A stretch of DNA of 64,000 bases from Bifidobacterium breve. GTDB lineage: Bacteria; Actinomycetota; Thermoleophilia; Solirubrobacterales; Solirubrobacteraceae. The position numbers were made by a program, and so were the translations under genes. Of the stretch, positions 13,873 to 44,093 are shown in pieces; the stretch's first letter is position 1, and the number at the start of each line of letters is the position of its first letter. The stretch spans positions 62,001 through 126,000 of the forward strand of contig CAMCUD010000001.1 of the NCBI GenBank assembly GCA_945878865.1, in the 5' to 3' direction. Below the pieces are notes generated by a model, which saw only the letters and a list, made by a program, of their open reading frames with translations, ran no database searches and was not told the origin of the DNA.

Positions 13873-15000
13873 CTACAGCGCCGCCAGCAGCCGCTCGACC
13901 ACGAACTCCACCTGCTCGACCGTCGTCGTCGACGACAGCGGCAGCGCGACATGCCGCGCCGCGACCTCCTCGCTCACCGGCCGGCGCCCGTGCGATTCGT
14001 ACTCGCTGAACTGCGTCAGCGACGGGTACCACGTCGTCTGGATGCCGTCGGCCTGCAGCGCGTCGCGGACGGCGTCACGCGTGCCGCGGTCGGGCAGCAG
14101 CGCGAAGAAGGCGAAGTGCGACGCGCGCTCGACGTCCTCGTCGGTCCACGGCAACTCCACCGCCGGGACGTCGGCGAGAAGCTCGCGGTACCGGCGGACC
14201 GCCACGCGGCGGCGCGCCAGGTCGTCGTCGAGCCGCGGAAGCCGCGACAGGCCGAGCGCCGCCCGGGGCTCATCCATCCGGTAGTTGAAGCCGATGTCGA
14301 GGATGTCGTAGCTCTCGGCGTGGCCGCGATGGCGGTCCCACGTCACCGACGTCATCGCGTGCGAGCGCAGCGACTTGACCTTCGCCGACCAGTCCTCGTG
14401 CGGGGTGACGACCATGCCGCCCTCCCCCACGCACAGCTGCTTCTTGCTGAAGAACGAGAAGCACCCCGCGTCGCCGGCCAGGCCGACGGGCGTGTCGTCG
14501 GCGCAGCGCGCACCGACGGCCTGGGCGCAGTCCTCGATGAGGGCGAGCCCGCGGTCGCCGCACAGACCCCGCAGGGAGATCATGTCGGCCGCGTAGCCGC
14601 CGAAGTGCACGGCGACGACCGCCTTCGTCCGCGGGGTGATCCGCGAGGCGACGTCGAGGATGTCGAGCGTCGGCTCGAGCGGGTCGCGGACGTCGGCGAG
14701 GATCGCCTCGGCGCCGCAGTACCGGGCGGCCGCTGCGGTCGCCACGAAGGTGAACGCGGGGACGATGACCTCATCGCCGGGGCCGACGCCCGCCGCGAGC
14801 AGCGCGAGGTGCAGCGCGGCGGTCCCCGAGCCGACGGCGACCGCACGCTCAGCCCCGAGCCACTCGGCGAACGCCGCCTCGAAGGCCTGCGTGCGCGGGC
14901 CCATCGTCAGCCAGCCCTCGGACAGGCAGGCCAGCACGGCCTGCACGTCGTCCTCGGTCATCTCGACGTTCGTCAGGGGGATGGAGAACGGCGTGCTCAT
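13873..15000 (-). CDS. DegT/DnrJ/EryC1/StrS family aminotransferase (copy 2)
   Basis: A 375-residue PLP enzyme that transfers an amino group to a keto-sugar nucleotide. The PLP lysine lies in GCFSFFSKKQLCVGEGGMV, and GTAALHLALLAAGVGPGDEV plus VHFGGYAADM are standard family blocks. The start at 15000 overlaps the stop codon of the upstream aminotransferase as ATGA; the much longer ORF-track start runs through that other gene in a different frame. It is closely similar to its neighbour (RSHAMTS-x-TW-x-RH, GFNYR-x-DEPR-x-ALGLSRL), so the pair is a tandem duplication. It is the last gene of the minus-strand polysaccharide operon. Confidence 0.92.
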   Translation of the reverse strand: MSTPFSIPLTNVEMTEDDVQAVLACLSEGWLTMGPRTQAFEAAFAEWLGAERAVAVGSGTAALHLALLAAGVGPGDEVIVPAFTFVATAAAARYCGAEAILADVRDPLEPTLDILDVASRITPRTKAVVAVHFGGYAADMISLRGLCGDRGLALIEDCAQAVGARCADDTPVGLAGDAGCFSFFSKKQLCVGEGGMVVTPHEDWSAKVKSLRSHAMTSVTWDRHRGHAESYDILDIGFNYRMDEPRAALGLSRLPRLDDDLARRRVAVRRYRELLADVPAVELPWTDEDVERASHFAFFALLPDRGTRDAVRDALQADGIQTTWYPSLTQFSEYESHGRRPVSEEVAARHVALPLSSTTTVEQVEFVVERLLAAL

Positions 15001-16163
15001 GCGCCGACCTCCGCCCGCAGCGCCGCGACGACCCGGTCCTGCTGCTCGTGCGTGAGGTGCGGGAACAGCGGGATCGTGATCTCGATGCGCGCCGCGCGCT
15101 CGGTCTTCGGCAGCGAGATGCCGGGGAACCGCTCCCGGTACGCCGTGAACTCGTGGACGGCCGGGTAGAAGACGCTGGTCTGCACGCCGTGCTTCTCGCG
15201 CAGCGCAATGCGGATCTCGTCGCGCCGCGCCGGGTCTTCCAGCGTGATCGGCATGACGTAGCACGACGAGTCGTCCACGCTCGCGTCGGTGAACATCAGC
15301 TGGAGGCCCGGGACGTCGCGCAGCAGCTCGCGATAGCGGCGGGTCAGGTCGCGGCGGGTCGCGATGTCGTCCTCCAGGCGGCGCAGCCGGGAGAGACCGA
15401 GCGCGCTGCGCGGCTCGTCGATCCGATAGTTGAACCCGAGCCCGACCACGTCGTACGTCGTCGTCTGGCCGGTGTGGCGCTCCCACGTCCCGCTGGTCAT
15501 CGCGTGCGAGCGCAGCGACCGCGCGACGTCGGCGATCCGCGCGTCGTCCGTGCACAGCAGCCCACCCTCGCCGACGGACAGGATCTTGTTGCTGAACAGG
15601 CTGAAGCAGCCCGCCGCGCCCCACGTGCCGAGCTTGCGCCCGTGCAGCGTGGCGCTCGGGGCGTGCGCGACGTCCTCGATGAGCGGGAGGCCGTGCGCGT
15701 CGGCGATCTCGCGCAGCCGGTCCACCGGCGCCGGGTACCCGGCGAAGTGCACCGCGGAGATCGCCTTCGTGCGCGGCGTGATCTTCGCCGCGACGTCGTC
15801 AGGATCGATCGAGAAGTCGTGGTCGCCGACGATGTCCGCGAACACGGGCGTCCCGCCGCAGTACAGGACCGCCGTGGCCGTCGCCGCGAACGTCATCGCC
15901 GGAACGATGACCTCATCGCCGGGCCCGACCCCCGCCGCAAGATAGGCGACGTGCAGCGCCGCGGTGCACGAGTTCACCGCGACCGCGTGCTCGCAGCCGA
16001 GATGCTCGGCGAACGCCGCCTCGAACTCCTGCGTCTTCGGGCCCATCGTGAGCCAGCCGGTCCGCAGGACCGCCTCGACCGCGTCGAGATCCTCCTGCTC
16101 GAGCCGCAGGTCGAAGAGCGGAATCTGCGGGAAGGTGTCAGCTGATGTTGCGGTACTTGGCAT
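14997..16163 (-). CDS. DegT/DnrJ/EryC1/StrS family aminotransferase (copy 1)
   Basis: A 388-residue PLP-dependent sugar aminotransferase. The catalytic lysine is in GCFSLFSNKILSVGEGGLL; other blocks are SCTAALHVAYLAAGVGPGDE and ISAVHFAGYPAPVD. Members produce amino sugars for O-antigen or exopolysaccharide. Its start overlaps the end of the epimerase gene by 26 bases and its stop overlaps the second copy by four bases, so the three genes are translated together. An epimerase or dehydratase upstream is the expected supplier of a keto-sugar substrate, although the neighbour looks more like a 4-epimerase class enzyme. Confidence 0.92.
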   Translation of the reverse strand: MPSTATSADTFPQIPLFDLRLEQEDLDAVEAVLRTGWLTMGPKTQEFEAAFAEHLGCEHAVAVNSCTAALHVAYLAAGVGPGDEVIVPAMTFAATATAVLYCGGTPVFADIVGDHDFSIDPDDVAAKITPRTKAISAVHFAGYPAPVDRLREIADAHGLPLIEDVAHAPSATLHGRKLGTWGAAGCFSLFSNKILSVGEGGLLCTDDARIADVARSLRSHAMTSGTWERHTGQTTTYDVVGLGFNYRIDEPRSALGLSRLRRLEDDIATRRDLTRRYRELLRDVPGLQLMFTDASVDDSSCYVMPITLEDPARRDEIRIALREKHGVQTSVFYPAVHEFTAYRERFPGISLPKTERAARIEITIPLFPHLTHEQQDRVVAALRAEVGA

Positions 16164-17115
16164 CGAACGGGTCCCCGAACGCGCCCGCGTCGAGCCCCGC
16201 GATGACCTCGGCGATCCCGTCCGGGACCGTCATGGTCGTCTCGAAGCCGAGCACGCGCTTGATCTTGTCGAAGCTCACCTTGTAGTCGCGCGGGTCCTCG
16301 TTCTTCTTGACGAACGAGACCTTGCCGCGCCCGACCTGGCGGTCGATCTCCTGTACGAGGTCGGCCTTGCGGTAGTTCTGGCCCGGCCGGCCCACGTTGA
16401 AGACCTCACGCGTGACGATCTCCGGCGCCGCGTCGAGCACGGTGCGCACCGCGCGGCCCGCGTCGCGGACGTGGACGTACGGCCGCCAGAACTGCTCGCC
16501 GAAGACCTCGAGTTCCTTGTCGGCCCACAGGTCCCGCGTGAACTCGTTGACCGTCAGGTCAAAGCGCATGCGCGGCGCGACGCCGTAGATCGTGGAGAAC
16601 CGCAGGCAGGTGGGCTGCAGGTCGCCCGTGTCGCCGTCGAGCAGCAGCTGCTCCATGCCGACCTTCTGCTCGGCGTACAGCGACACCGGCGCGAGCTCGC
16701 CCTCCTCGGTGATCGGGACCGTCGGATCGGCCATGCGCCCGTAGTTCGAGCAGGTCGAGGCGAAGATGAAGCGCGAGACCCCGGCGGCGTCCGCGTCGGC
16801 GATGAGCCCGCGCGTGCCTTCGAGATTGACGTCGTTGGAGAGCTCGGGATCGCGGGCGCAGGCCGGATCGCCGACGATCGCGGCGAGATGGACGACCGCA
16901 TCGGCGCCGTCGAGGGCGCGGTGGCGGACGTCGTGGTCGCGGATGTCGCCGATCACCAGCTCGACGCCCTTGGCCTCGAGGTCCTTCGCGATGTCGTCCT
17001 GCCCGTGCAGCAGCACGTCGAGCGCGCGCACGCGCCGCCCGCTGCGCAGCAGCTCCTCGCACAGCGGCGCGCCGATGTACCCCGCGCCGCCCGTGACCGT
17101 CACCAGCTCACTCAT
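16138..17115 (-). CDS. NAD-dependent sugar-nucleotide epimerase/dehydratase
   Basis: A 325-residue extended SDR protein. The NAD-binding motif T-GGAGYIG is at the N-terminus, the DIRDHD and VVHLAAIVGDP blocks follow, and the catalytic YAEQK (Y-x3-K) lies near residue 145. FSTIYGVAPRMRFDLTVNEF and RPYVHVRDAGRA are typical of the epimerase subgroup that acts on NDP-sugars. The start at 17115 overlaps the preceding glycosyltransferase stop as ATGA; the ORF-track start is an upstream shadow. Exact substrate unknown. Position between a glycosyltransferase and two aminotransferases supports a role in making a modified sugar donor. Confidence 0.9.
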   Translation of the reverse strand: MSELVTVTGGAGYIGAPLCEELLRSGRRVRALDVLLHGQDDIAKDLEAKGVELVIGDIRDHDVRHRALDGADAVVHLAAIVGDPACARDPELSNDVNLEGTRGLIADADAAGVSRFIFASTCSNYGRMADPTVPITEEGELAPVSLYAEQKVGMEQLLLDGDTGDLQPTCLRFSTIYGVAPRMRFDLTVNEFTRDLWADKELEVFGEQFWRPYVHVRDAGRAVRTVLDAAPEIVTREVFNVGRPGQNYRKADLVQEIDRQVGRGKVSFVKKNEDPRDYKVSFDKIKRVLGFETTMTVPDGIAEVIAGLDAGAFGDPFDAKYRNIS

Positions 17116-18290
17116 CGATCTCCAGTCGTCTTCGCCACGTCCCTCTTCATCGACACCGCATCGAAGCCCTGCAGCAACAGCGCGCCGAACCTGGCGTGGA
17201 AGACCTCCGGCCCGAAGTCGCGCGCGTGGGCGCGCAACGCCGCGTCGTCGAGCGCGAGGGACTCGAAGCGCTCGATCGCGGCGGCCAGCCCGTCCGCCGA
17301 CGGGTCGTCGTAGAGCACGCCGGTGACGCCGTCCTGCACCGAGTCGCGCGCCCCGCCCTCGCCCAGCGCGAGGACCGGCATGCCGGCCGCCTGCGCTTCG
17401 ACGGGGACGATCCCGAAGTCCTCGACCCCGGGGAAGAGCAGCGCGCGGCACGTCGCCATGAGCTCATCGGCCTCCGTGTCGCTGACGCGGCCGCGGATGT
17501 CGATGTTCGGGTCGTCGCCGGCCGCGGCGCGAACGTGCTCCATGAACCGCCCGTCGCCGGCGACGACGAGCCGCCGGCCAAGCTTGCGACAGGCCTCCAC
17601 GGCGGCGTCCGGGCGCTTGTACGGCACCAGCCGGCCGAAGACGAGGTACGGCGCGTCGGGGCCGACCCGGCGCTCGCGCGTAACGAAGCGCTCGACCTCC
17701 ACCGGGGGATGGACGACCTCGGCGTCGCGATGCCACCAGTCGCGGACGCGCTGCGCGACGAACGACGAGTTCGCCGCGATGAGCGTGGGCTGCTTGGCGC
17801 CGCGCGCGTCGACGCGGCGCAGATACGCGGTCAGCGGCTTGACGATCGCGCGGGCCGCCGGGCCGAGGTCCTCCTGGAGCAGGAAGTCCGGATCCCATGC
17901 GTAGCGCATGGGCGTGTGGCAGTAGCAGACGTGCGGCACGCCGGCCGGCGTGCGGACGTTCTTCGCGCACGCGTGGTTCGACGAGATGACGAGGTCGAAG
18001 CCCGACAGGTCGAAGCGCCGGAACGCCGTGTCCATCAGCGGCAGCAGCTTCGGGTACTGCGTCGTCGCCTTCGGGATCTTCTGGATGAAGCTCGGGTGCA
18101 CCGGTCGGTCGGTGATGAACTCGTCGAACGGCGCCGGGTCGTAGACGCTGCAGAAGATCTCCGCGTGCGGGACAAGCCGCAGGATCGCCTCGATGACCTT
18201 CTCCGACCCGCCGGGCACGGCGAGCCACTCGTGGGTCACGGCGACGCGCGGATAGCGCTCGCGGAGCTGCTCGACGAGGGGGTCCGCCAC
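17112..18290 (-). CDS. Glycosyltransferase family 4 (mannosyltransferase-like)
   Basis: A 392-residue GT-B enzyme of the WbaZ/RfbU-like branch. The N-terminal blocks VAVTHEWLAVPGGSEKVIEAI, FDLVISSNHACAKNVRTP and CYCHTPMRYAWDP are characteristic of that branch, and the donor domain has YLVFGRLVPYKRPDAAVEAC and FPGVEDFGIVPVEAQAAGMPV with the conserved E-x7-E. Ten bases separate it from the phosphoglycosyltransferase gene upstream and four bases overlap the epimerase downstream. It likely adds an early sugar to the lipid-linked repeat unit; mannose is suggested only by family resemblance. Confidence 0.9.
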   Translation of the reverse strand: MADPLVEQLRERYPRVAVTHEWLAVPGGSEKVIEAILRLVPHAEIFCSVYDPAPFDEFITDRPVHPSFIQKIPKATTQYPKLLPLMDTAFRRFDLSGFDLVISSNHACAKNVRTPAGVPHVCYCHTPMRYAWDPDFLLQEDLGPAARAIVKPLTAYLRRVDARGAKQPTLIAANSSFVAQRVRDWWHRDAEVVHPPVEVERFVTRERRVGPDAPYLVFGRLVPYKRPDAAVEACRKLGRRLVVAGDGRFMEHVRAAAGDDPNIDIRGRVSDTEADELMATCRALLFPGVEDFGIVPVEAQAAGMPVLALGEGGARDSVQDGVTGVLYDDPSADGLAAAIERFESLALDDAALRAHARDFGPEVFHARFGALLLQGFDAVSMKRDVAKTTGDR

Positions 18291-18300
18291 CGGCGGGACG

Positions 18301-19797
18301 CTACTCGGCGGACCGGAGGACCGCGAAGACCGTCCGGGCGAGGATCTTCCAGTCCAGCGCCAGGGACCAGTGCTCGATGTAGAAGTTGTCGAGCTCGACG
18401 CGGTCGGCGAGCGACGTCTGCCCGCGCAGGCCGTGGACCTGCGCCCAGCCGGTCATCCCGGACTTCACGCGGTGCCGGTCGTCGTAGCGGCGCATGTCGG
18501 CGCTGAACAGCTCGACGAACTCCGGGCGCTCCGGGCGCGGGCCGACGAGGCTCATCTCGCCGCGCAGCACGTTGACGAGCTGCGGCAGTTCGTCCAGGGA
18601 CGTGCGCCGCAGCATGCGCCCGACGCTGGTGCGGCGGTCGAGCCCCTCCACGCCTCCGGGCGCGGCGCCCGAATCGGGCGTGAAGCCGCGGTCGGCGCGC
18701 TCCTCGGTCATCGTGCGGAACTTCAGGAGGTCGAAGCTGCGGCCGTCGCGCCCGATGCGGCGCTGGCGGAACAGCACCCCGCCCGGCGAGCTCAGCCGGA
18801 CGGCGATCGAGATCCCCGCGAGCACCGGGAGGAGCGCCACGAGCAGCAGCGCCGCGATGACGCGGTCCTGCGCGTGCTTGACGGTGAACTGCCAGCCGCG
18901 CGGGTCGGTGCGGCGCAGGCCCAGCAGCGGCAGGCCGCCGACCGGGTCGTAGAGCACGCGGTCGTTCATCGACTCGAACATCCGCGGCACCAGGGAGACC
19001 TCCAGGCCGAGCGCCTCGGCCTGGCGGATCGTCGCCAGCAGGTCCTGGTCGGGCTCGTTGGAGAAGGCCAGGACGAGGTTGCGCGCGCGGGTGAGCTCGA
19101 CGATCGCCTCGAGGTCCGCCGGATCGCCGAGCACCGGTGCGGGGCGGCCCCCGACGTCGCTCTGGGACGGCGGGTCGATGTCGAGGAAGCCGACGGGCAC
19201 CATCCCGTACTCCGGCGCGTCAGCGAGCCGCCGAGCGACCTGGGCGCCGACGACGCCCGCGCCCACGATGAGGGTGGGGCGCGCCGAGCGGCCCGTGGTC
19301 CGCGCCCAGCGCTCGAGCATCGAGACACCGGCGCGCCCGAGACCCACGAGCACCAGCGCGCCGACGTACGCGCGCACCATGACGCCGACCTCGATCCGCA
19401 GGCCGAGCGCCGTGTCGAGCACCACCATCGCCATCGCGGCGACCGAGATCGCGCCGGCGACGGGGCCGACGGTGTCGAGGAACAGCGACCGCAGTCGCCG
19501 CTCGTAGGTGTGACGGACCGCCAGCGCCGCGACGGCAGCCGGCGGGAAGAAGATCAGCGGCAGCGTCTCGGCGCCGGGCTGCAGGCCGGCCGACGCCATC
19601 GCCAGCGAGGACGCCATGACCAGCGCGATCGTGTCCAGCAGCAGGCGCAGCGCCTGGATGCCTCGCCCCTCGACGAACCCGGCGAGCCGGCCCTTGGGCA
19701 GGACGATGAGCCGCAGCGGCCCGGACGGCCGTCGGGGCAGGCGCCGTCGGAGGGCGACGGCCTCTCCGGCGGGTGTGGTCACGTGGGTCTCAGGCAA
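18301..19797 (-). CDS. Polyprenyl-phosphate sugar phosphotransferase (WcaJ/WbaP type)
   Basis: A 498-residue membrane enzyme that starts repeat-unit synthesis by transferring a sugar phosphate onto undecaprenyl phosphate. Several N-terminal membrane segments are followed by a Rossmann-like CoA_binding domain (TLIVGAGVVGAQVARRLAD) and a further helix (VIAALLLVALLPVLAGISIAV). The C-terminal catalytic domain has LLKFRTM, RRTSLDELPQLVNVLRGEMS and LVGPRPERPEF, the complete PGT signature. The intact catalytic end and full length indicate an active enzyme. It should be the first committed step for the glycosyltransferases downstream. Confidence 0.94.
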   Translation of the reverse strand: MPETHVTTPAGEAVALRRRLPRRPSGPLRLIVLPKGRLAGFVEGRGIQALRLLLDTIALVMASSLAMASAGLQPGAETLPLIFFPPAAVAALAVRHTYERRLRSLFLDTVGPVAGAISVAAMAMVVLDTALGLRIEVGVMVRAYVGALVLVGLGRAGVSMLERWARTTGRSARPTLIVGAGVVGAQVARRLADAPEYGMVPVGFLDIDPPSQSDVGGRPAPVLGDPADLEAIVELTRARNLVLAFSNEPDQDLLATIRQAEALGLEVSLVPRMFESMNDRVLYDPVGGLPLLGLRRTDPRGWQFTVKHAQDRVIAALLLVALLPVLAGISIAVRLSSPGGVLFRQRRIGRDGRSFDLLKFRTMTEERADRGFTPDSGAAPGGVEGLDRRTSVGRMLRRTSLDELPQLVNVLRGEMSLVGPRPERPEFVELFSADMRRYDDRHRVKSGMTGWAQVHGLRGQTSLADRVELDNFYIEHWSLALDWKILARTVFAVLRSAE

Positions 19798-19844
19798 TGT
19801 TCTGGTCCATCGCGGGCGGAGCGCCTCGGCGATGTCGGGGAATC

Positions 19845-19856
19845 ACCAGATCTGGT
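19845..19856. promoter_or_regulatory. Perfect 12-bp palindrome upstream of the phosphoglycosyltransferase
   Basis: ACCAGATCTGGT, 48 bases in front of the start codon at 19797. It could be an operator. No other copy was noticed in the window. Confidence 0.3.
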
Positions 19857-19885
19857 CATCCCACGGTATCGGGTCTGCGAGGCGG

Positions 19886-19917
19886 GTTCGAGTGACGGGT
19901 GACACCCTGCATCGAAC
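19886..19917 (-). terminator. Nested hairpin after the O-antigen-ligase gene
   Basis: GTTCGA/TCGAAC encloses GGGTG-a-CACCC. It lies six bases past the stop codon of the ligase-like gene on the same strand, inside the minus-strand gene cluster. Without a T tract it may be an internal attenuator or RNA processing site rather than a full terminator. Confidence 0.45.
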
Positions 19918-19922
19918 GCCGT

Positions 19923-21899
19923 TCAGGTCCCGACGGAGCGCGACCGCGCGAGCAGCTCCACGTTGACCTGCGTGACGTCGAGCGTTTCGCCCCGCCCCAC
20001 CCGTGCCAACGCGTCCGCCGCCACCTCGTTGCGGGGATCCAGCGCCACGGCCCGGGAGAGCAGCGCGATGGCGCGGGCGCGGTCGCCGCGCGCCGAGGCG
20101 ATCGCGCCGCGCTGGAGCAGCGCGTACGCGAGGTCGGGGTTGCGCGCGAGCGCCGCGGCGAAGTACCGGTCGGCGACGCCGAGGGTCCGCCGGCGCACCG
20201 CGATCGTGCCGCCTGTGAGGTACGGCCCGGCGCTCAGCGGGTTCAGCCGCGCGGCCCGGTCGACGTCCTGGAACGCGCCGAGCGGGTCCCGCGGCCACGT
20301 CGTCCCCGCCTCGCCGCTGGCGCGCTCCGCCGCCCACGGGAGTGCGAACGACGCCGCGGCGACCACGCAGCCGGCCGTGATCGCGGCGGCGCCCGCGACG
20401 GCGGCGGCCCTCGCGCGCGGCGCGGCGCGCGGCGGCACGAGCGCCGCGGCCATCCCCAGCAGGGCGAACGCCGGCAGCGACGCGGCCGGGAACTGCCAGA
20501 GCCAGTCGCCGGCGCCGTGCACGAGGAACCCGGTGAACCCGAACAGCGCGCCCGCCCCCGCCGCCACGCCGAGCGGGTCGCCCGCGCGCAGGACCCGCGC
20601 TCCCGCCCACGCGATGCCGGCGAGCCAGGCCACGGCGATCAGCCCCCCGACCGCGCCGAGGTCGGCGAGGGTCTCCAGCGGCCAGGAGTGGGCGAACCGC
20701 GGCGTCTCACGCGAGCGCCCGAGCCGGAGGTAGGCCGCCTGGTAGTTGTCGGCGCCGACGCCGAGGACGGGCTCCTCGCCGAACGCCTTCAGCGCCGCGC
20801 GGTAGAAGTCCGAGCGGTTGGAGCCCAGCTGGCCGAGGCGGCTCTGTGCCGCCCCGCGGGTCTCGTAGCCCTGGTCGAACGATCGCCACGCGTCACCTGC
20901 GCGGGTGACCAGCAGCACGACCGCGGCCAGCGCGACCAGCGCGACGCCGGCAGTCGCCGTGATCGCCCAGGCGCGGCGGACCCGGGCCGCCGTCTGCGCG
21001 TCCGCCCGGCGCGCGAGCAGCACCCCTGCCACCACGAGCGCCCCGACGAGCACGCCGCCGGCCAGCGCCGCGCGCATCGCCGCGTGGACGGCGCCGAGCT
21101 CCCCTGCCCCGACCCGCAACGCCGGCCCGACGTCGAGCACGAACGGCACCGACGCCGCCGCGCCGGCGCCGATCGCCGCAAGCACCGCGAGATGGCGCAG
21201 ACGCCCGGGCGCGCATGCGAGGAACAGCGCCGCGGTCACCGGGAACGCCGCGACGGCCCCGCGGCTCAGGCACAGCAGCGCGAGATCAAGCAGCAGCACC
21301 GTCCCACCGGCCAGCCACGCCCGGATGGCCAGCGGCACGCGCGGGGACGCAGCGAGCGCCACGCAGGGCCAGATCGGCAGCATCCACAGCGCGGCCTGCG
21401 CGTTGGCGTAGCCGAGCGGCTCGACGAGCCTGTCGCCGAAGAACCAGTCGGTGGCCGCGTCCGCGTCGAGGATCCGCACCGCGACGACGGCGGCCAGCGC
21501 CACCATTCCCGCGGCCCAGCCGCCGAGCAGCCACGTGGCCGTGACGGCGCGCTGGCGCCACAGCCCGAAGAGCGACGCGGCGAGCAGCAGGAGCAGCAGC
21601 CGGTTCGCGCCCTCCCATGCGGCGCCCTGATCGGACGCCCACAGGATCGACAGGTAGGACCACGCGCACAGCGCGGCGAGGCCGCCCAGCGCCGCGAGCG
21701 CGGCGGCGGGGGCGTCACGCAGCCCGTCGTGCAGGACGACGGCGGTCAGCGCCAGGAGCGCGAGGAGCCCGAACGCCAGCGGCGTCCACTGCCCGACCCG
21801 GATCCCCCCGCCGTCGGCTGCCAGGACGAGCAGCGCGACGACGGCGAGACCGCCGGGCAGCGTCGCCGGCGCTGCGCGGAGCGCCGCGCCGGCGGTCAT
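19923..21899 (-). CDS. O-antigen ligase/polymerase-like membrane protein with C-terminal TPRs
   Basis: A 658-residue protein with about a dozen hydrophobic segments over the first 500 residues (for example GGLAVVALLVLAADGG and LLLLLLAASLFGLW). The block FGEEPVLGVGADNYQAAYLR, followed by ETPRFAHSWPLETLADLG, matches the Wzy_C loop of O-antigen ligases and polymerases, including the H of the catalytic loop. The last 120 residues contain TPR-like helices (YFAAALARNPDLAYALLQRGAI, then ARAIALLSRAVALDPRN). It is expected to polymerise or attach the glycan outside the membrane. The start follows directly after the stop codon of the lipoprotein gene. Confidence 0.87.
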   Translation of the reverse strand: MTAGAALRAAPATLPGGLAVVALLVLAADGGGIRVGQWTPLAFGLLALLALTAVVLHDGLRDAPAAALAALGGLAALCAWSYLSILWASDQGAAWEGANRLLLLLLAASLFGLWRQRAVTATWLLGGWAAGMVALAAVVAVRILDADAATDWFFGDRLVEPLGYANAQAALWMLPIWPCVALAASPRVPLAIRAWLAGGTVLLLDLALLCLSRGAVAAFPVTAALFLACAPGRLRHLAVLAAIGAGAAASVPFVLDVGPALRVGAGELGAVHAAMRAALAGGVLVGALVVAGVLLARRADAQTAARVRRAWAITATAGVALVALAAVVLLVTRAGDAWRSFDQGYETRGAAQSRLGQLGSNRSDFYRAALKAFGEEPVLGVGADNYQAAYLRLGRSRETPRFAHSWPLETLADLGAVGGLIAVAWLAGIAWAGARVLRAGDPLGVAAGAGALFGFTGFLVHGAGDWLWQFPAASLPAFALLGMAAALVPPRAAPRARAAAVAGAAAITAGCVVAAASFALPWAAERASGEAGTTWPRDPLGAFQDVDRAARLNPLSAGPYLTGGTIAVRRRTLGVADRYFAAALARNPDLAYALLQRGAIASARGDRARAIALLSRAVALDPRNEVAADALARVGRGETLDVTQVNVELLARSRSVGT

Positions 21900-25098: not shown

Positions 25099-25135
25099 GG
25101 TGGACCACCCCGTGTCACGCGGGGATCCGTCCACC
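25099..25135 (-). terminator. Hairpin at the end of the DPM-like transferase gene
   Basis: GGTGGAC and GTCCACC enclose CCCC/GGGG. On the minus strand it covers the last codons of the transferase gene and is followed by a pyrimidine-rich stretch (CTCTTCACCTTCTTCC), giving a partial terminator signature between the transferase and dehydrogenase genes. Confidence 0.5.
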
Positions 25136-25882
25136 CCTTCGGCGGTCCCGGCGCGCCCGTGCCGACGCGGCGAGCCTGAGGGCGGGCACCTTCCATGCCG
25201 CCTCGAGCGCAACGCGCGCGGTCATCTTCGACGTTCCGACCCGCCGGTCCCGGAACACGATGGGCACCTCGGCGATGCGGTAGCCGAGCCGCACCGCGCG
25301 GAAGGTCATCTCGATCTGGAACACGTAGCCGTTGGCGCGCACGCCATCGAGGTCGATCGCCCGCAGCACGTCGGCGGCAAAGCACTTGAAGCCGCCGGTG
25401 AGGTCGCGGACCTGGACGCCGAGGATCGTCCGGGCGTACCAGGAGCCGCCCGCGCTGATGATGCGCCGCGCGGGCCCCCAGTCTTCGATCGCGCCGCCCT
25501 CCACGTACCGCGATCCCAAGGCCACGTCGGCGTTTCCCGCCAGCACGGGCTCGAGCAGGCGCGGCAGGTCCTCCGGATCGTGGGAGAAGTCGCAGTCCAT
25601 CTCGACGAGCAGGTCCGCACCGCCATCGAGCGCCTCACGGAAGCCCGCCAGGTACGCGCGCCCCAGCCCGCGCTTGGGCCCGTTGTGCCGGACGTGGACC
25701 CGGGGATCCTCCGCGGCGATCCGGTCGGCGATCGCGCCGGTCCCGTCGGGCGAGTCGTCGTCGACGACGAGGACATGCGGCTCCACCGGCGCGCGTGAGA
25801 GCGCGCCGAGGACGGCCGTCAGCAGCGGCTCGAGGTTCTCGGCCTCGTTGTACGTCGGCAGGATCACCCAGGCGGACGGCAC
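25115..25882 (-). CDS. Polyprenol-phosphate mannosyltransferase-like glycosyltransferase (GT2, DPM1 type)
   Basis: A 255-residue GT-A enzyme. N-terminal ILPTYNEAENLEPLL and VVDDDSPDGTGAIADRI, the metal/donor motif VEMDCDFSHDPEDLPRLL, GSRYVEGGAIEDWG and LTGGFKCFAADVLRAI are all in the order of dolichol- or polyprenyl-phosphate mannose synthases. Bacterial members charge a polyprenyl carrier for glycosylation outside the membrane. It lacks the C-terminal membrane helices seen in fused actinobacterial forms. The start is GTG. It is divergent from the riboswitch-controlled gene. Confidence 0.92.
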   Translation of the reverse strand: MPSAWVILPTYNEAENLEPLLTAVLGALSRAPVEPHVLVVDDDSPDGTGAIADRIAAEDPRVHVRHNGPKRGLGRAYLAGFREALDGGADLLVEMDCDFSHDPEDLPRLLEPVLAGNADVALGSRYVEGGAIEDWGPARRIISAGGSWYARTILGVQVRDLTGGFKCFAADVLRAIDLDGVRANGYVFQIEMTFRAVRLGYRIAEVPIVFRDRRVGTSKMTARVALEAAWKVPALRLAASARARRDRRRGGRIPA

Positions 25883-26060: not shown

Positions 26061-26148
26061 GGACCTCCCGACAAGAGCACACCCGCCGTGAGGCGGGGCC
26101 GCAAAGCCAGGGGTCTCACCGAGACCGCCCAGCTGCCGAAGGAGACCC
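26061..26148 (+). promoter_or_regulatory. Probable cyclic-di-GMP-I (GEMM) riboswitch
   Basis: The sequence shows a stem CCCGCC/GGCGGG capped by a GTGA (GNRA) tetraloop at 26082-26097, then the conserved core CCGCAAAGCCA, a second hairpin GGTCTC-acc-GAGACC, and the tail CAGCTGCCGA. Order and spacing match the GEMM-I aptamer, in which the GNRA loop docks into the second helix. The ribosome site AAGGAG begins at the end of the aptamer, and GGGTCTC (26111-26117) can pair either with the aptamer strand or with GAGACCC (26142-26148), which covers part of the ribosome site. This suggests translational control with the ligand-bound form leaving the site open. The match was made by eye. Confidence 0.82.
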
Positions 26149-26154
26149 GCCCGG

Positions 26155-27474
26155 ATGCCCGCAGTTCGCGTGCGCAGCTTCACGCTGCTCGCATTGACCA
26201 TCTTCACCACGCTGATCGCGGCGCTCGCGATCGGCGCCCCGGCGCAGGCCGCGGCGAAGAAGGCCAAGCCGAAGTGCACTCCGGCGCAGGTCGCCAAGCT
26301 CAAGGCGGCCGCCGAGCGCCAGGCGCGCAAGACGACCCGCAGCGCGTCGCGCCGTAAGGCGGCACGCGCATCGCTCCTCGCCGCCGCCCTGAAGCGCAAC
26401 GGCTGCTCGGCGCGCAAGGTCACCGAGGTCAAGACGAAGACCACGACGACCACGACGACGACCACCACGTCTTCGCCGAAGACGTCGTCGGGCGCGCCCA
26501 AGACCTCCCCCTCAGCCCCCACGAAGACCGTCGACCAGGCGCCCGCCGCGCCGACGCCGTCCCCGACCACCTCGCAGAGCTGGTGGACGGGCATGCAGGG
26601 TGGCGCCAACGCATGGGATGCGCGGGTCGGCCAGAAGCTCGGCGCGCGGATCGTGCGGGTCGAGTTCGAGATCGGGACGCCCGTCAGCTCGATGCGGTCC
26701 TTCATCGCCGACTATGCCGACCGCGGGATCCGCGTCCTGCCGCTCGCCGGCTTCTGGGGCCGCATCCCCAGCCAGAGCGAGGCCCGCAGCCTCGCCGCGT
26801 GGGCCCGCGAGTTCGGCCCCGGCGGCAGCTTCTGGGCGTCGCGCCCGGCGCAGGCCGCGCTCGCCGTCCGCCAGATCGAGTTCGGCAACGAGACGTCCTT
26901 CGCCTACCAGGGCACGCAGAAGCGCGGCGGCGAGTACGCCCAGCGCGTCCGCGACGCCGCCGAAGCGCTCGCCGGCACGCAGGTCGGCCTCCTCGTGCAG
27001 GCCGACAACGCCAACCAGAGCGACAACTGGATCGGCCAGATGTTCTCCGCCGTCCCGAACCTCGCCGACTACGTCGCCGGCTGGACCGTCCACCCGTACG
27101 GCCCGAAGAGCAAGTGGCAGAACCGCATCGACGAGGTCCTGACCCGCACCGCCGGCTACGGCGCGCCGAGCAGCATCCCGGTCGACATCACCGAGTGGGG
27201 CCTGTCCACCGACAACGGCCGCTGCCTGAACGACAACTACGGCTGGGACAAGTGCATGACCTACCAGCAGGCCGGCGACGCCCTGACGAGCACGGTCGCG
27301 GACATGAAGGCCCGCTACGGCGGCCGCATCCGCCACTTCCTCATCTACAACGGCCGCGACCTGCGCGGCGCGGGCTCCAGCAGCGACCGCGAGAACTACT
27401 TCGGCCTGACGACGCTCGACGAGCAGGACAAGGGCGGGTTCACCGCCGCCGCGAAGGCGGTGCTCGCCGGATGA
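26155..27474 (+). CDS. Secreted clan GH-A-like glycoside hydrolase
   Basis: A 439-residue exported protein downstream of the probable c-di-GMP riboswitch. The signal peptide is LLALTIFTTLIAALAIGAPAQA. A basic, lysine/arginine-rich segment (about residues 30-95) and a threonine-rich linker with a run of ten threonines lead to a TIM-barrel domain. VRQIEFGNETSF holds the expected acid/base E246 after Asn, and PVDITEWGLS holds the expected nucleophile E347, the GH-A pattern seen in GH5, GH39 and GH51. Substrate is unknown; cleavage of the organism's own exopolysaccharide is an attractive idea given the neighbours. The ribosome site AAGGAG lies 10 bases upstream. Confidence 0.82.
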   Translation: MPAVRVRSFTLLALTIFTTLIAALAIGAPAQAAAKKAKPKCTPAQVAKLKAAAERQARKTTRSASRRKAARASLLAAALKRNGCSARKVTEVKTKTTTTTTTTTTSSPKTSSGAPKTSPSAPTKTVDQAPAAPTPSPTTSQSWWTGMQGGANAWDARVGQKLGARIVRVEFEIGTPVSSMRSFIADYADRGIRVLPLAGFWGRIPSQSEARSLAAWAREFGPGGSFWASRPAQAALAVRQIEFGNETSFAYQGTQKRGGEYAQRVRDAAEALAGTQVGLLVQADNANQSDNWIGQMFSAVPNLADYVAGWTVHPYGPKSKWQNRIDEVLTRTAGYGAPSSIPVDITEWGLSTDNGRCLNDNYGWDKCMTYQQAGDALTSTVADMKARYGGRIRHFLIYNGRDLRGAGSSSDRENYFGLTTLDEQDKGGFTAAAKAVLAG

Positions 27475-30542: not shown

Positions 30543-31322
30543 ATGCCCGACTCACCAGTTCGCGGGATGCCACCACCGGACGGCCTGGAGATCTTCTGGG
30601 ACGCCGCAGGAGTGCTCTTCTGCATCACCAATCACGAGCAGCGCCTCCTCGCCGTCAACCGCGCGTGGAGCACCATCCTCGGATACGAGGCCGAGGCCCT
30701 GCTCGGCCGCGTGACCTGGGATCTCATGCACCCCGAGGACGCCCGGCGCCTGCAGGCCGAGCCGTTCTCGGTCGACGATCCCGTCGGTCGTCGACTCGTC
30801 ATCGACGTCGAGACGCGGTATGCGCACGTCGACGGCAGCACGCGCTGGCTGCAGTGGACGGGCGAGGAGCGCGACGGCCTCTGGTACGCCGTGGGTCACG
30901 ACGTCACCTCCATGCACGTCGCGACCACAGCGCTGCACGCCAGCCAGCAGCGCGCCCGCGCGGTCATGGGCGCGCTGCGCGACGGCATCGTCACCGTGGC
31001 CCCCGACACCCGTGTCCTGGAGGTCAGCGCGCGGTTCACCGCCCTGACCGGTTGGACGGAGCGGGACCTCCTCGGGACGCGTCCGCCGTACGCGTGGTGG
31101 CCCGCCGAGGACATCGCCGCCCGTGAGCGCGACCTGCGCGACGCCCTGCGCGGCGGCAGCGCGACCTGGCGCGGGGCCTGCCTGCGCAAGGACGGCACCC
31201 GGTTTGACGCGCTCGTCGACGCGGTCGGCGTTCCCCGCGCTGGCGGCGCCGGCCCCGCGCTGGTCAAGGTCGTTCGGGACCTCTCCGATCCCGAGGGCCC
31301 TGCGCCGCGGTTCGCGGGCTAG
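30543..31322 (+). CDS. Two-PAS protein without output domain
   Basis: A 259-residue cytoplasmic protein with two PAS domains and nothing else. PAS-A (about residues 15-125) has [19 protein letters not shown] and [18 protein letters not shown] (about 130-245) has [20 protein letters not shown] and the signature PPYAWWP. It has no kinase, GGDEF, HTH or phosphatase part. It is the shortest of four related proteins (see 31360, 36983 and 38166) and lacks the WEWYP domain of the others. The ORF-track ATG is kept; an ATG eight codons later (30567) is also possible. Binding of a small ligand and a partner protein is inferred from PAS biology. Confidence 0.82.
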
Positions 31323-31359
31323 AGCGGCGACGAACTAGGCTGGGTCATCCCCGTTTCAG

Positions 31360-32850
31360 GTGACCCAACCTTCTGCCGATAGCAACCGCGTGTCGTCCCC
31401 GCGGCAGACCGAGCAGCGCGATGACACCCTCCCGACGGCCCACCCGGACGACGTCCAGCTCTTCTGGGAACTCACGTCGGAGCTGTTCTGCGTGCTCGAC
31501 AACGAGGGCAAGATCCTCGAGGTCAACCCTGCCTGGAAGCGCGTCCTGGGGTGGGATGCCGAGCAGCTGCTCGGCCACAACATCTACGAGTTCGTCCACC
31601 CCGACGACATCCCCGGCGCCCGCGAGGCGCACATGCGCCGCGGCGGCGACGGGCAGCGCCTGGAGGAGTACCCGTGCCGCTACCGCCACGCCGACGGGAG
31701 CGTGCGCTGGCTGAGCTGGAGCGGGTTCATGCGTGGCCCGCGCTTCTACGGCAGCGCGCGGGACATCACCGCGACCCGCATGTCGCACTCCGCGCTGCAG
31801 CAGAGCGAGCGCCGGTCCCGCGCGATCCTGGCGGCCCTGCGCGAGGGGCTCGTCATCATCGACCGCCAGGGGCGCGTGGTCGAGGCCAACGACCGGTTCG
31901 CCGAGATGGTGGGCATTCCCGTGCGCGAGATGCTCGGCCTGCGCCCGCCGTATCCGTGGTGGCCGCCGGACCAGCGCCGCCAGATCGCCGCCGCCATCGA
32001 CGAGATCGCGCGCGAGGAGCGGGTGACCCACGAGCTGACGTTCGTGCGCGCCGACGGCGAGCGCTTCCCCGTCCTCATCGACACGTCGCGGATGCGCGAG
32101 CGCGACGGCCGCACCGTGAGCCTGTCGGTCATTCGCGACATCAGCGAGCTCGTCACCACGCGCAACCGCCTCCAGGAGGCCCACCGCGTGGCGGAGCTCT
32201 CGACGTGGGAGTGGTACCCCGACCGGGACCTCGTTTTCGCGTTCGAGACGGCGACCGGCGCGGGCGGAACCATCGAGATGACCGGCGAGCAGTCGCTCCT
32301 GCACCTGCAGCCCGCGTGGCGCGAGGAGGTGCGCCGCCTGCGCGAGGAGACCTACGAGGGCCTGCGCGAGACGTTCGTCGCCGATGCGGTCACGCTCGAC
32401 ATGGGGTGGATGCAGATCCGCGGCGAGCAGCTGCGCGCCGCCGACGGGCGGATCACCGGCCTGCGAGGCACCGCCCAGCGCATCGACGCGCAGCGCACCG
32501 CCGAGATCGAGGCGGCGCTGCAGCGCGACGTCCTCGACGCCATCGACGTCGCCTTCATGGCCCGCGGCCCCGACACGCGCCTCGTGCACGTCAACGACGC
32601 GGCGCTGCGCCTGTTCGGCTTCTCCCGTGACGAGATCCTCGGGACGCTGCCGGCCGAGACCGGCATCCTCCAGGCGGAGGACCCGGCGACGCACGAGCTG
32701 TACGCCGCCACGCAGCGCGGCGAGCAATGGGACGGCGAGATGCAGCTGCGCCGCAAGGACGGCTCGACGCTCCGCGCCCGGGTGCGGACGACCGTCGTGG
32801 TGCGCGAGGGCGGCGCGCAGTATTCGGCGGGCATCATCGTGCCGCTGTGA
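31360..32850 (+). CDS. Multi-PAS protein without output domain
   Basis: A 496-residue cytoplasmic protein. PAS-A (about 28-140) contains VQLFWELTSELFCVLDNEGK and RYRHADGSVRWLSW. PAS-B (about 145-265) contains RRSRAILAALREGLVIIDRQ and PPYPWWPPDQ. A third domain starts at TWEWYPDRDLVFAFE and ends GRITGLRGTAQRI, and a fourth PAS follows (VLDAIDVAFMARGPDTRLVH to the C-terminus). No catalytic output region is present. The start is GTG. The stop codon overlaps the start of the DUF3052 gene (GTGA), so the two are translated together. A signal-integrating scaffold is an inference. Confidence 0.85.
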   Translation: MTQPSADSNRVSSPRQTEQRDDTLPTAHPDDVQLFWELTSELFCVLDNEGKILEVNPAWKRVLGWDAEQLLGHNIYEFVHPDDIPGAREAHMRRGGDGQRLEEYPCRYRHADGSVRWLSWSGFMRGPRFYGSARDITATRMSHSALQQSERRSRAILAALREGLVIIDRQGRVVEANDRFAEMVGIPVREMLGLRPPYPWWPPDQRRQIAAAIDEIAREERVTHELTFVRADGERFPVLIDTSRMRERDGRTVSLSVIRDISELVTTRNRLQEAHRVAELSTWEWYPDRDLVFAFETATGAGGTIEMTGEQSLLHLQPAWREEVRRLREETYEGLRETFVADAVTLDMGWMQIRGEQLRAADGRITGLRGTAQRIDAQRTAEIEAALQRDVLDAIDVAFMARGPDTRLVHVNDAALRLFGFSRDEILGTLPAETGILQAEDPATHELYAATQRGEQWDGEMQLRRKDGSTLRARVRTTVVVREGGAQYSAGIIVPL

Positions 32851-36270: not shown

Positions 36271-36918
36271 ATGGCCGGCCGAACCCTCGCCCAGCGCGCG
36301 ATGCGCAACCCGGTCCTCCCGCTGATCTACGAGCGGGTCTGGCGGCCGGTCGGCTTCACCCTCGCGTCGGCCGGACGGTCGACGACGGCCGAGCAGGAGC
36401 GCATCGACGCCTTCCTCGCGCTCGCCCCCGGCGCGCGTGTGCTCGACGTCGCGTGTGGGCCGGGCAACACGACGCGCCGCCTCCTCCGGACACTCGGCCC
36501 GGACGGCCGGATCACCGGGCTCGACGCCGCGCCGGCGATGATCGCGCGCGCCCGCGCCGACACTGACGATCCACGGGTCGACTACATCCAGGGCGACGCA
36601 ACGGCGATGCCGTTCGCCGACGGCGCCTTCAACGCCGTGACGTGCCTCGGCGCGCTCTACCTCGTCGAAGACGCCGAGGCGGTGCTCGACGAGCTCGTGC
36701 GCGTGGTGGCGCCCGGCGGCCGGGTCGTCGTCCTGACCAGCGTGCACCGCGGCCCCGCCCCGCTCCACGGCCTGGCCGACGCGCTCATGCGGCCTGCGGG
36801 CATGCGGGTGTTCGGTGCCGATGAGGTCACCGCCGCGCTACGCGACCGCGGCCTGGTGCACGTGCGGCGCGAACTCGCCGGATTCCTGCAGCTCGCAGCT
36901 GGCAGCCGTCCGATGTGA
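36271..36918 (+). CDS. Class I SAM-dependent methyltransferase
   Basis: A 215-residue methyltransferase of the UbiE/Methyltransf_11 type. Motif I is VLDVACGPGNTTRRLLRTLG, followed by GLDAAPAMIARARAD, IQGDATAMPFADGAFNAVTC and a VVAPGGRVVVLTSV block. The N-terminal 50 residues (RNPVLPLIYERVWRPVGFTL) are seen in several actinobacterial methyltransferases that act on lipids or small molecules. Its end overlaps nothing, although a shadow start of the following PAS gene lies inside it. Substrate unknown. Confidence 0.88.
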   Translation: MAGRTLAQRAMRNPVLPLIYERVWRPVGFTLASAGRSTTAEQERIDAFLALAPGARVLDVACGPGNTTRRLLRTLGPDGRITGLDAAPAMIARARADTDDPRVDYIQGDATAMPFADGAFNAVTCLGALYLVEDAEAVLDELVRVVAPGGRVVVLTSVHRGPAPLHGLADALMRPAGMRVFGADEVTAALRDRGLVHVRRELAGFLQLAAGSRPM

Positions 36919-36947
36919 CGGACCCCGAAGAGAACACACTGTCCCAT

Positions 36948-36976
36948 TTGACGCGGGGTCCGCACCGGAGGATGCT
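36948..36976 (+). promoter_or_regulatory. Promoter of the PAS gene at 36983 (leaderless type)
   Basis: TTGACG, 17 bases, GATGCT, then six bases to the GTG start codon. The same -35, spacer length, -10 hexamer and distance occur in front of the PAS gene at 38166. A GGAGG also overlaps the -10 element. Confidence 0.65.
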
Positions 36977-36982
36977 CTCGCT

Positions 36983-38122
36983 GTGGACGCCGATGCGGAC
37001 GAGGTCGAGCGGTTCTGGGAGCAGGCCTCGGAGTTGTTCTGCGTCCTCGAGGCCGAATCCGGACGTTTCCTTCGCGTGAACCCCGCGTGGACGCGCACGC
37101 TGGGATGGACGGAGGATCAGCTGCTCGGGCGTCGCGCGACGGACTTGCTCCACCGTGGGGACACATGGACCGCCGCCGCCGTCGAAACGGATCCGGTGAC
37201 CGGCGAGATGGTCGTACGCGACGTCGAGAACCGCTACCGACACATTGACGGCAGCTACCGCTGGCTGCGGTGGAAGGGCCACCTGCGCGACGGCCGCTTC
37301 TTCGGCATGGCGTCCGACATCAGCGGGACCCGCGCGAGCGAGATGACGATCCGTCTCAACGAGCGGCGGGCCCGCGCAGTGCTCGAGGCGCTCGACGACG
37401 GCCTCTTCATCGCCGGCGGCGACGGGCAGGTCCTCGAGGCCAATGAACAGTTCGCCCGGCTCGTCGGCGTATCCGCACACCGGATCCTCGGGAGCACACC
37501 GCCATATCCCTGGTGGCCCGACGAGCACGTCGCGAGGATGCAGGCGCTCCACGAGTCCGCGCAAAACGGCGCGACGGCCAAGCTGGAAGAGGGCACGCTG
37601 ATCACGGCGGATGGACGAACGATCACGGTGCGTGAGAGCCTGACCCCGTTCCCCTACGACCCCACCCAGCCCGCACTGCTCGTCGTCGTCCGTGACATCA
37701 GCGAGCACGTCGTCGTCCGTAACCGTCTCCTTCGCGCGCACCGCCGCGCCCGCATGATGATCTGGGAGTGGTACCCCGCCGAGGAACAGTTCGTCGTGCT
37801 CGGCAACGGACTGTCCGCAGACGGTCCGGCGGTGCAGGAACTGACCCGCGACGACGCCCTCGGGGATGTGATCGAACGCGCCGACGAGGTCAGCGAGGCC
37901 CTCGACGCCGTCTACGCAGGCCGCACCGGGCACGTCGACCTCGACGCGCGCGTCTCCGTCGCAGGCGCGTCACCTTGGGTGCGCATCCCAGGTGACCCGA
38001 TCCTCTCGGAAGACGGCGACATCATCGGGGTCCACGGCACGGTCAGGGCGATCCTCGCGCCGCGCGAGCGCGTCAGCCGCGCCAGCTACGAGCATCCAGC
38101 CCCGGCGCCCACCTCGGAATAG
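36983..38122 (+). CDS. Multi-PAS protein without output domain
   Basis: A 379-residue protein of the same family as the product of 31360. PAS-A holds VERFWEQASELFCVLEAESG and RYRHIDGSYRWLRW; PAS-B holds RARAVLEALDDGLFIAGGDG and PPYPWWPDEH; the third domain starts MIWEWYPAEEQFVV and ends IGVHGTVRAIL. There is no fourth PAS and no output domain. I placed the start at the GTG (VDADADEVERFW) because it follows the promoter by six bases and matches the short N-terminus of the next gene. The ORF-track start lies inside the methyltransferase gene. Confidence 0.82.
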   Translation: MDADADEVERFWEQASELFCVLEAESGRFLRVNPAWTRTLGWTEDQLLGRRATDLLHRGDTWTAAAVETDPVTGEMVVRDVENRYRHIDGSYRWLRWKGHLRDGRFFGMASDISGTRASEMTIRLNERRARAVLEALDDGLFIAGGDGQVLEANEQFARLVGVSAHRILGSTPPYPWWPDEHVARMQALHESAQNGATAKLEEGTLITADGRTITVRESLTPFPYDPTQPALLVVVRDISEHVVVRNRLLRAHRRARMMIWEWYPAEEQFVVLGNGLSADGPAVQELTRDDALGDVIERADEVSEALDAVYAGRTGHVDLDARVSVAGASPWVRIPGDPILSEDGDIIGVHGTVRAILAPRERVSRASYEHPAPAPTSE

Positions 38123-43972: not shown

Positions 43973-43980
43973 CCGTTCCA

Positions 43981-44054
<74 letters not shown>

Positions 44055-44093
44055 AGGGGTCGGCAAGTGTAGCGCCAGTACAGTCCGCGCCCC

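What the first reader, a model, noticed from the sequence alone, without database searches (positions are those of the whole stretch)
26061..27474. c-di-GMP-I riboswitch with a ribosome-site switch ahead of a secreted glycosidase, next to exopolysaccharide genes
The leader shows the GEMM-I order: GNRA-capped stem, CCGCAAAGCCA core, second helix and CAGCTGCCGA tail. GGGTCTC of the second helix can pair with GAGACCC that overlaps the ribosome site, so folding of the aptamer and blocking of translation exclude each other. The controlled gene has a signal peptide, a basic and Thr-rich linker and a GH-A domain with E246 and E347. The window also holds three GGDEF proteins. A c-di-GMP-switched glycosidase acting on the organism's own matrix would be a simple dispersal or remodelling circuit.
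Basis: partly seen in the sequence, partly recalled or inferred. Interest (0 to 1): 0.85.

Follow-up and report, generated by a model that had tools for sequence, protein, structure and literature searches.

The report
Riboswitch before secreted matrix glycosidase
An actinobacterium carries a real cyclic-dinucleotide RNA switch directly ahead of a secreted sugar-cutting enzyme; relatives keep the same pair inside exopolysaccharide gene clusters, but this copy has a changed ligand-pocket base that makes its ligand an open, testable question.

Summary
The riboswitch is real. Window 26067-26141(+) matches Rfam c-di-GMP-I (56.5 bits, cut-off 35) and, better, its sister model RF03167 (62.9 bits). 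It lies directly ahead of a secreted protein, 26155-27474, which has no close known family but is predicted confidently (pLDDT 93.5) as a clan GH-A barrel. E246 and E347 sit at strands 4 and 7 and are invariant in 18 aligned family members.

The aptamer-glycosidase pair is conserved at 8 loci in Solirubrobacterales. In 4 of 5 distant cases it sits beside Wzz, Wzx, Wzy or glycosyltransferase genes, which supports the matrix idea.

(1) The pocket base equal to Vc2 G20 is A here; it is G in 130 of 132 related aptamers. A20 is the key base of cGAMP-type GEMM-I switches. It recurs in 8 of 399 class genomes and is kept in two sister species. This genome has 79 GGDEF domains but no Hypr signature and no SMODS cyclase was found, so c-di-GMP at a higher threshold remains likelier than cGAMP. 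(2) The proposed P3/ribosome-site switch is 4.7 kcal/mol worse than the best fold and is not conserved. The ribosome site instead abuts helix P1, so ligand more likely lowers translation; direction unproven.

The parts
26067..26141 (+). GEMM-I (c-di-GMP-I clan) riboswitch aptamer
   Evidence: RF03167 62.9 bits; RF01051 56.5 bits
26076..26076 (+). pocket base at Vc2 position 20: A instead of G
   Evidence: model position 10, directly 5' of the first P2 pair 26077-26102; G in 130 of 132 related aptamers
26077..26102 (+). helix P2 with GUGA tetraloop 26088-26091
   Evidence: alignment; sequence
26103..26103 (+). pocket base at Vc2 A47: A, conserved
   Evidence: A in all 132 aptamers
26105..26134 (+). 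helix P3 (contains GGGTCTC 26111-26117)
   Evidence: alignment
26136..26136 (+). pocket base at Vc2 C92: C, conserved (J1/3)
   Evidence: model position 75
26065..26070 (+). 5' strand of P1; CUCC 26065-26068 can pair with GGAG of the ribosome site
   Evidence: pairing probability 0.78; MFE
26140..26144 (+). ribosome-binding site AGGAG, fused to the 3' end of P1
   Evidence: sequence; same SD-at-P1 arrangement in most close loci
26142..26148 (+).
   Evidence: forced fold -39.8 vs -44.5 kcal/mol, P = 0.0015
26155..27474 (+). secreted GH-A-like glycosidase, 439 aa
   Evidence: ORF; homologues
26155..26250 (+). signal peptide (about residues 1-32, ending AQA)
   Evidence: by eye from translation
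26575..27471 (+). (beta/alpha)8 catalytic domain
   Evidence: AlphaFold2 pLDDT 93.5, pTM 0.91; Foldseek to GH1/5/10/26/51/53/158
26890..26892 (+). E246 codon, acid/base candidate after strand 4 (GNE)
   Evidence: invariant in 18 sequences
27193..27195 (+). E347 codon, nucleophile candidate on strand 7 (TEWG)
   Evidence: invariant in 18 sequences
25115..25882 (-). divergent GT2 glycosyltransferase, kept beside the pair in the genus
   Evidence: Pfam PF00535; 83-86% identical neighbour in L257 and L258
14997..21899 (-). exopolysaccharide-type cluster: DegT aminotransferase, epimerase, GT4, bacterial sugar transferase, Wzy_C
   Evidence: Pfam

Best explanation
A GEMM-I riboswitch controls translation of a secreted GH-A glycosidase that trims the cell's own exopolysaccharide. 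Shown: aptamer, gene, conserved pairing of the two, EPS context in relatives, and a pocket with A at Vc2 position 20. Inferred: when the cyclic dinucleotide binds, helix P1 is stabilised; because the ribosome site AGGAG is fused to the 3' strand of P1 and can pair with CUCC on its 5' side, translation falls. When the ligand falls, the enzyme is made and loosens the matrix. The ligand is most likely still c-di-GMP, sensed with lower affinity than by the G20 aptamers of the relatives (and of the second aptamer of this genome); cGAMP is the alternative.
For: Aptamer. Same pair at 8 loci (window, L257-L259, L262-L265), while the other glycosidase paralogues tested in this genome lack an aptamer. 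EPS neighbours Wzz/BY-kinase-like, PMT, Polysacc_synt_3, Wzy_C and GT4 in L259, L263, L264, L265. Fold and catalytic pair. Regulon of 130 related aptamers is secreted or surface proteins: 25 type IV pilin-like, 15 CAP, 11 GHL15 glycosidases, subtilases, a flagellin. P1/ribosome-site pairing 0.78 and SD directly at P1. 79 GGDEF domains, none with the Hypr serine where the motif is intact, no SMODS match, hence c-di-GMP.
Against: A20 weakens c-di-GMP binding in Vc2 (a G20 mutation: 30,000-fold, PMC4744006). P1-to-ribosome-site pairing is not general: over 52 leaders the predicted pairing with upstream sequence equals shuffled controls (0.13 vs 0.12) and L263 lacks CUCC. L264 has no ribosome site at all. 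Substrate is unknown, and the window's own EPS cluster is 4-11 kb away.
Confidence: 0.55

Rival explanations
1. The A20 pocket makes this a 3',3'-cGAMP (or mixed cyclic-dinucleotide) riboswitch, like GEMM-Ib of Geobacter.
For: A20, A47, C92 is the Geobacter cGAMP set (PMC6274999 places A14, A41, C75 at those positions, A14 directly before P2). Geobacter Gm0970 is about 1600-fold selective for cGAMP (PMC8835794). A20 is kept in two species of one genus ahead of orthologous genes and occurs in 8 of 399 genomes.
Against: No Hypr GGDEF with intact motif and no SMODS cyclase found in this 96% complete genome. The two congeners have G20 ahead of the orthologous gene, so the change is recent here.
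Confidence: 0.2
2. One reading: P3 GGGTCTC pairs with GAGACCC to hide the ribosome site without ligand; the ligand frees it (ON).
For: 7 perfect pairs are present. Permutation over related leaders gives marginal support for P3 5' strand/ribosome-site complementarity (P 0.048, 0.018).
Against: 4.7 kcal/mol worse than the best fold, probability 0.0015. P3 is transcribed and can fold before the ribosome site exists. GAGACCC is kept only in the genus, where the congeners' P3 reads GGGATCTC. In 52 leaders the mean probability is 0.04.
Confidence: 0.13
3. The A20 aptamer has lost ligand binding and is a decaying leader; the gene is made constitutively.
For: G20 is otherwise almost invariant (130 of 132); one further relative, L066, has C there.
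Against: All other conserved features are intact and the aptamer scores above both gathering cut-offs. A20 is retained between sister species elsewhere.
Confidence: 0.12

Closest known systems
c-di-GMP-I riboswitch (GEMM-I, RF01051; Vc2)
   Same: fold, P2 GNRA loop, GCAAAGCC J2/3, A47 and C92, interhelical C44/G83 positions
   Different: A at position 20; compact GC-rich P3; ribosome site fused to P1
c-di-GMP-I-GGC (RF03167)
   Same: best-scoring Rfam model; same P3 and GAAG tail
   Different: the model consensus has G at its position 37 (Vc2 47); this RNA and all 131 relatives examined have A
cGAMP riboswitch (GEMM-Ib, Geobacter Gs1761/Gm0970)
   Same: A20, A47, C92 pocket set
   Different: first P2 pair is G-C here, C-G (C15-G40) in the Geobacter structure; no Hypr synthase found; actinobacterial
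Clan GH-A glycosidases (GH5/26/53/158); PslG and other EPS-cluster glycosidases as functional parallels
   Same: (beta/alpha)8 barrel, Glu after strand 4 and on strand 7; encoded with EPS genes, as PslG is (PMC9075953)
   Different: no Pfam family above cut-off and no PDB sequence match; best fold matches at only 10-17% identity

Membership tests
c-di-GMP-I riboswitch (RF01051) | covariance model score above gathering | tested here: met
   56.5 bits, cut-off 35
c-di-GMP-I riboswitch (RF01051) | ligand-contact residues G20, A47, C92 (PMC4744006) | tested here: not met
   A47 and C92 present, G20 is A at 26076
c-di-GMP-I riboswitch (RF01051) | binds c-di-GMP | not testable with these tools
   needs in-line probing
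c-di-GMP-I-GGC (RF03167) | score above gathering | tested here: met
   62.9 bits, cut-off 59
c-di-GMP-I-GGC (RF03167) | G at model position 37 (my reading of 'GGC' from the consensus; source paper not held) | tested here: not met
   A in the window and in all 132 aptamers
cGAMP GEMM-Ib riboswitch | A at position 20 with A47 and C92 | tested here: met
   26076, 26103, 26136; position mapping from PMC6274999
cGAMP GEMM-Ib riboswitch | cGAMP selectivity | not testable with these tools
   needs binding assay
cGAMP GEMM-Ib riboswitch | cGAMP synthase in the genome (Hypr GGDEF or SMODS cyclase) | tested here: not met
   79 GGDEF domains: no Ser at the D344 place where the motif is intact; no SMODS match. 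Genome 96% complete
Glycoside hydrolase clan GH-A | (beta/alpha)8 barrel with Glu after strand 4 and on strand 7 | tested here: met
   model pLDDT 93.5; strands 100-104 and 203-209, E106 and E207 of the model = E246 and E347
Glycoside hydrolase clan GH-A | membership in a named GH family | tested here: inconclusive
   best Pfam hit PF00150 below cut-off; PF11790 in 2 of 18 relatives; no PDB sequence match

The most novel reading that the evidence does not exclude
A20 GEMM-I aptamers of Thermoleophilia, this one included, sense 3',3'-cGAMP or a mix of cyclic dinucleotides, outside the Geobacter group and in a genome without a known cGAMP synthase, and use it to control a matrix glycosidase. That would imply an unrecognised cGAMP-making enzyme in Actinomycetota.
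Probability: 0.17. Interest if true: 0.78.

Novelty: new variant of a known kind. Interest (0 to 1): 0.5.

Why it matters
It ties a cyclic-dinucleotide riboswitch to an enzyme predicted to act on the cell's own exopolysaccharide, conserved across an order of little-studied actinobacteria, so that matrix remodelling can be tested with one leader and one enzyme. The recurrent A20 pocket in natural aptamers outside Geobacter asks whether cGAMP signalling, or affinity tuning of c-di-GMP sensing, is wider than known; one binding assay would decide.

Tried and rejected
(1) and alignment A1 used an off-frame translation (start 26580); it still hit homologues by conserved DNA. Repeated in frame from 26581; conclusions rest on the latter. 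(2) Third RF03167 hit in the own genome (L003, 16.7 bits) is weak (E 0.58) and not treated as an aptamer. (3) Permutation tests for pairing of the ribosome site with P1 upstream sequence: no signal; for the P3 5' strand: marginal. The expression platform is therefore not proven either way. (4) MFE z-score of the leader is 0.0: folding energy alone says nothing here. (5) c-di-GMP-II (RF01786) search found nothing, but its controls were silent too. (6) No promoter-like or terminator-like site around the leader, so no sign of a transcriptional platform here. (7) Primary papers on G20A, GEMM-Ib and RF03167 are not in the library; values come from secondary open papers.

Full report
WHAT IS THERE. 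The window is part of a 5 Mb, 79-contig actinobacterial genome. One of the two genomes of its genus corresponds to Svornostia abyssi J379 (Solirubrobacterales). At 26067-26141(+) lies a complete GEMM-I aptamer: RF03167 62.9 bits, above its cut-off of 59, and RF01051 56.5 bits, above its cut-off of 35. The genome has one other such aptamer, C16:603-691, ahead of another secreted protein.

THE POCKET. The ligand contacts in Vc2 are G20, A47 and C92 (PMC4744006). In the window they are A (26076), A (26103) and C (26136), read from the model alignment. The position is unambiguous: A26076 stands directly 5' of the first P2 pair, 26077-26102, as A14 does before C15-G40 in the Geobacter cGAMP riboswitch (PMC6274999). 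I collected 131 related aptamers from the order. Position 20 is G in 130 of 132, C in one (L066) and A only in the window; position 47 is A in all 132 (one mis-anchored row, L061, was read by eye and has G20). Both same-genus orthologues carry G20. Across 399 genomes of the class, the same core with A20 occurs in 8 genomes and with G20 in 126. Two species of one genus (G180, G195) keep A20 ahead of orthologous genes, and all eight score as GEMM-I-type aptamers. So A20 is rare but recurrent and, at least there, maintained. In Vc2 a mutation of G20 cut c-di-GMP binding 30,000-fold (PMC4744006), and a natural Geobacter cGAMP aptamer prefers cGAMP about 1600-fold (PMC8835794). Those are secondary citations; the primary papers are not held.

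WHICH LIGAND. The genome holds 79 GGDEF domains. I checked each at the residue equal to PleD D344, which is serine in cGAMP-making Hypr enzymes (PMC7288161). 63 have D by direct motif; of the rest, those with an intact GGDEF motif also have D, and the remainder are degenerate. No SMODS-type cyclase was found. A c-di-GMP sensor with lowered affinity is therefore the most economical reading; cGAMP stays open. In the sister-species pair with A20, one GGDEF protein has N at the D344 place with an intact GGEEF (L299, L300), which I could not interpret.

THE GENE. 26155-27474 encodes a 439-residue protein with a signal peptide, a basic stretch, a Thr-rich linker and a catalytic domain. Pfam gives only sub-threshold hits and the PDB no sequence match. 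AlphaFold2 on an 18-sequence alignment gives pLDDT 93.5 and eight alternating strands and helices. Foldseek's best solved matches are clan GH-A enzymes of GH1, 5, 10, 26, 51, 53 and 158, at 10-17% identity. E246 follows strand 4, E347 is on strand 7, and both are invariant.

IS THE PAIR CONSERVED? Yes. Homologues with an aptamer just upstream: L257, L258, L259, L262, L263, L264, L265, besides the window. The paralogues without an aptamer include the other copies tested in this genome. In L259, L263, L264 and L265 the pair lies beside Wzz or BY-kinase-like, PMT, Polysacc_synt_3, Wzy_C or GT4 genes. In L262 the neighbours gave no EPS family. In the genus the divergent neighbour is a GT2 gene, 83-86% conserved, and the window's EPS cluster is at 14997-21899(-). 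I take this as the best evidence for action on the organism's own polysaccharide; it is still inference.

THE REGULON. The genes behind 130 related aptamers are almost all secreted or surface proteins: 25 type IV pilin-like, 15 CAP, 11 GHL15 glycosidases, 6 of a second glycosidase-like type, 6 subtilases, 4 of the window's family, and a flagellin. A secreted glycosidase behind such an aptamer is thus typical in this order, not exceptional.

THE SWITCH. GAGACCC is confined to the genus, where the two congeners have GGGATCTC in P3. Matching of P3 5' strands to ribosome sites over 61-62 leaders is marginal (P 0.018-0.048). The alternative is that AGGAG (26140-26144) is fused to the P1 3' strand and pairs with CUCC 26065-26068 (probability 0.78). 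CTCC is also present in the leaders of S. abyssi, L259, L262 and L265, is altered in L257, is absent in L263, and L264 has no ribosome site. Over 52 leaders, however, such pairing does not exceed shuffled controls. I therefore favour ligand-dependent occlusion (OFF) by position, with moderate confidence, and do not claim it as shown.

VERDICT. A genuine and conserved riboswitch-glycosidase unit in EPS context, in a known riboswitch class, with an unusual and recurrent pocket base. The ligand and the sign of control are the open points.

Noticed in passing
L276 and L277 (genomes G180, G195), aptamer near 1464-1542 (-): A20 aptamers kept in two species of one genus ahead of orthologous secreted proteins; the same genomes share a GGEEF protein with N at the D344 place (L299, L300).
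   Followed up: partly
L275 (G210), aptamer 1466-1541 (-): A20 aptamer followed by CTGGGCTTTTT that can pair with AGCCCAG of the P3 3' strand: a terminator exclusive with the aptamer, suggesting an ON transcriptional switch there.
   Followed up: partly
130 loci: RF03167-type aptamers of Solirubrobacterales precede type IV pilins (25), CAP proteins (15), GHL15 glycosidases (11), subtilases, ice-binding and flagellin genes: a broad cell-surface regulon.
   Followed up: partly
132 aptamers: All score on RF03167 (c-di-GMP-I-GGC) yet have A at the position where the model consensus has G; Rfam's label may mislead about the pocket.
   Followed up: yes
L066 (G045): An aptamer ahead of a GHL15 protein has C at position 20.
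   Followed up: no
own genome: 79 GGDEF domains in one 5 Mb genome but only two c-di-GMP-I aptamers.
   Followed up: no
L265, contig CAJCHW010000064.1: Record labelled Chlamydiae, but aptamer, glycosidase and neighbours look like Solirubrobacterales; probably mis-binned.
   Followed up: no
window 30543-32850 and 36815-38122 (+): Several PAS-only proteins without an output domain lie near the pair.
   Followed up: no
window 43980-44055 (-): tRNA-Arg (ACG).
   Followed up: no
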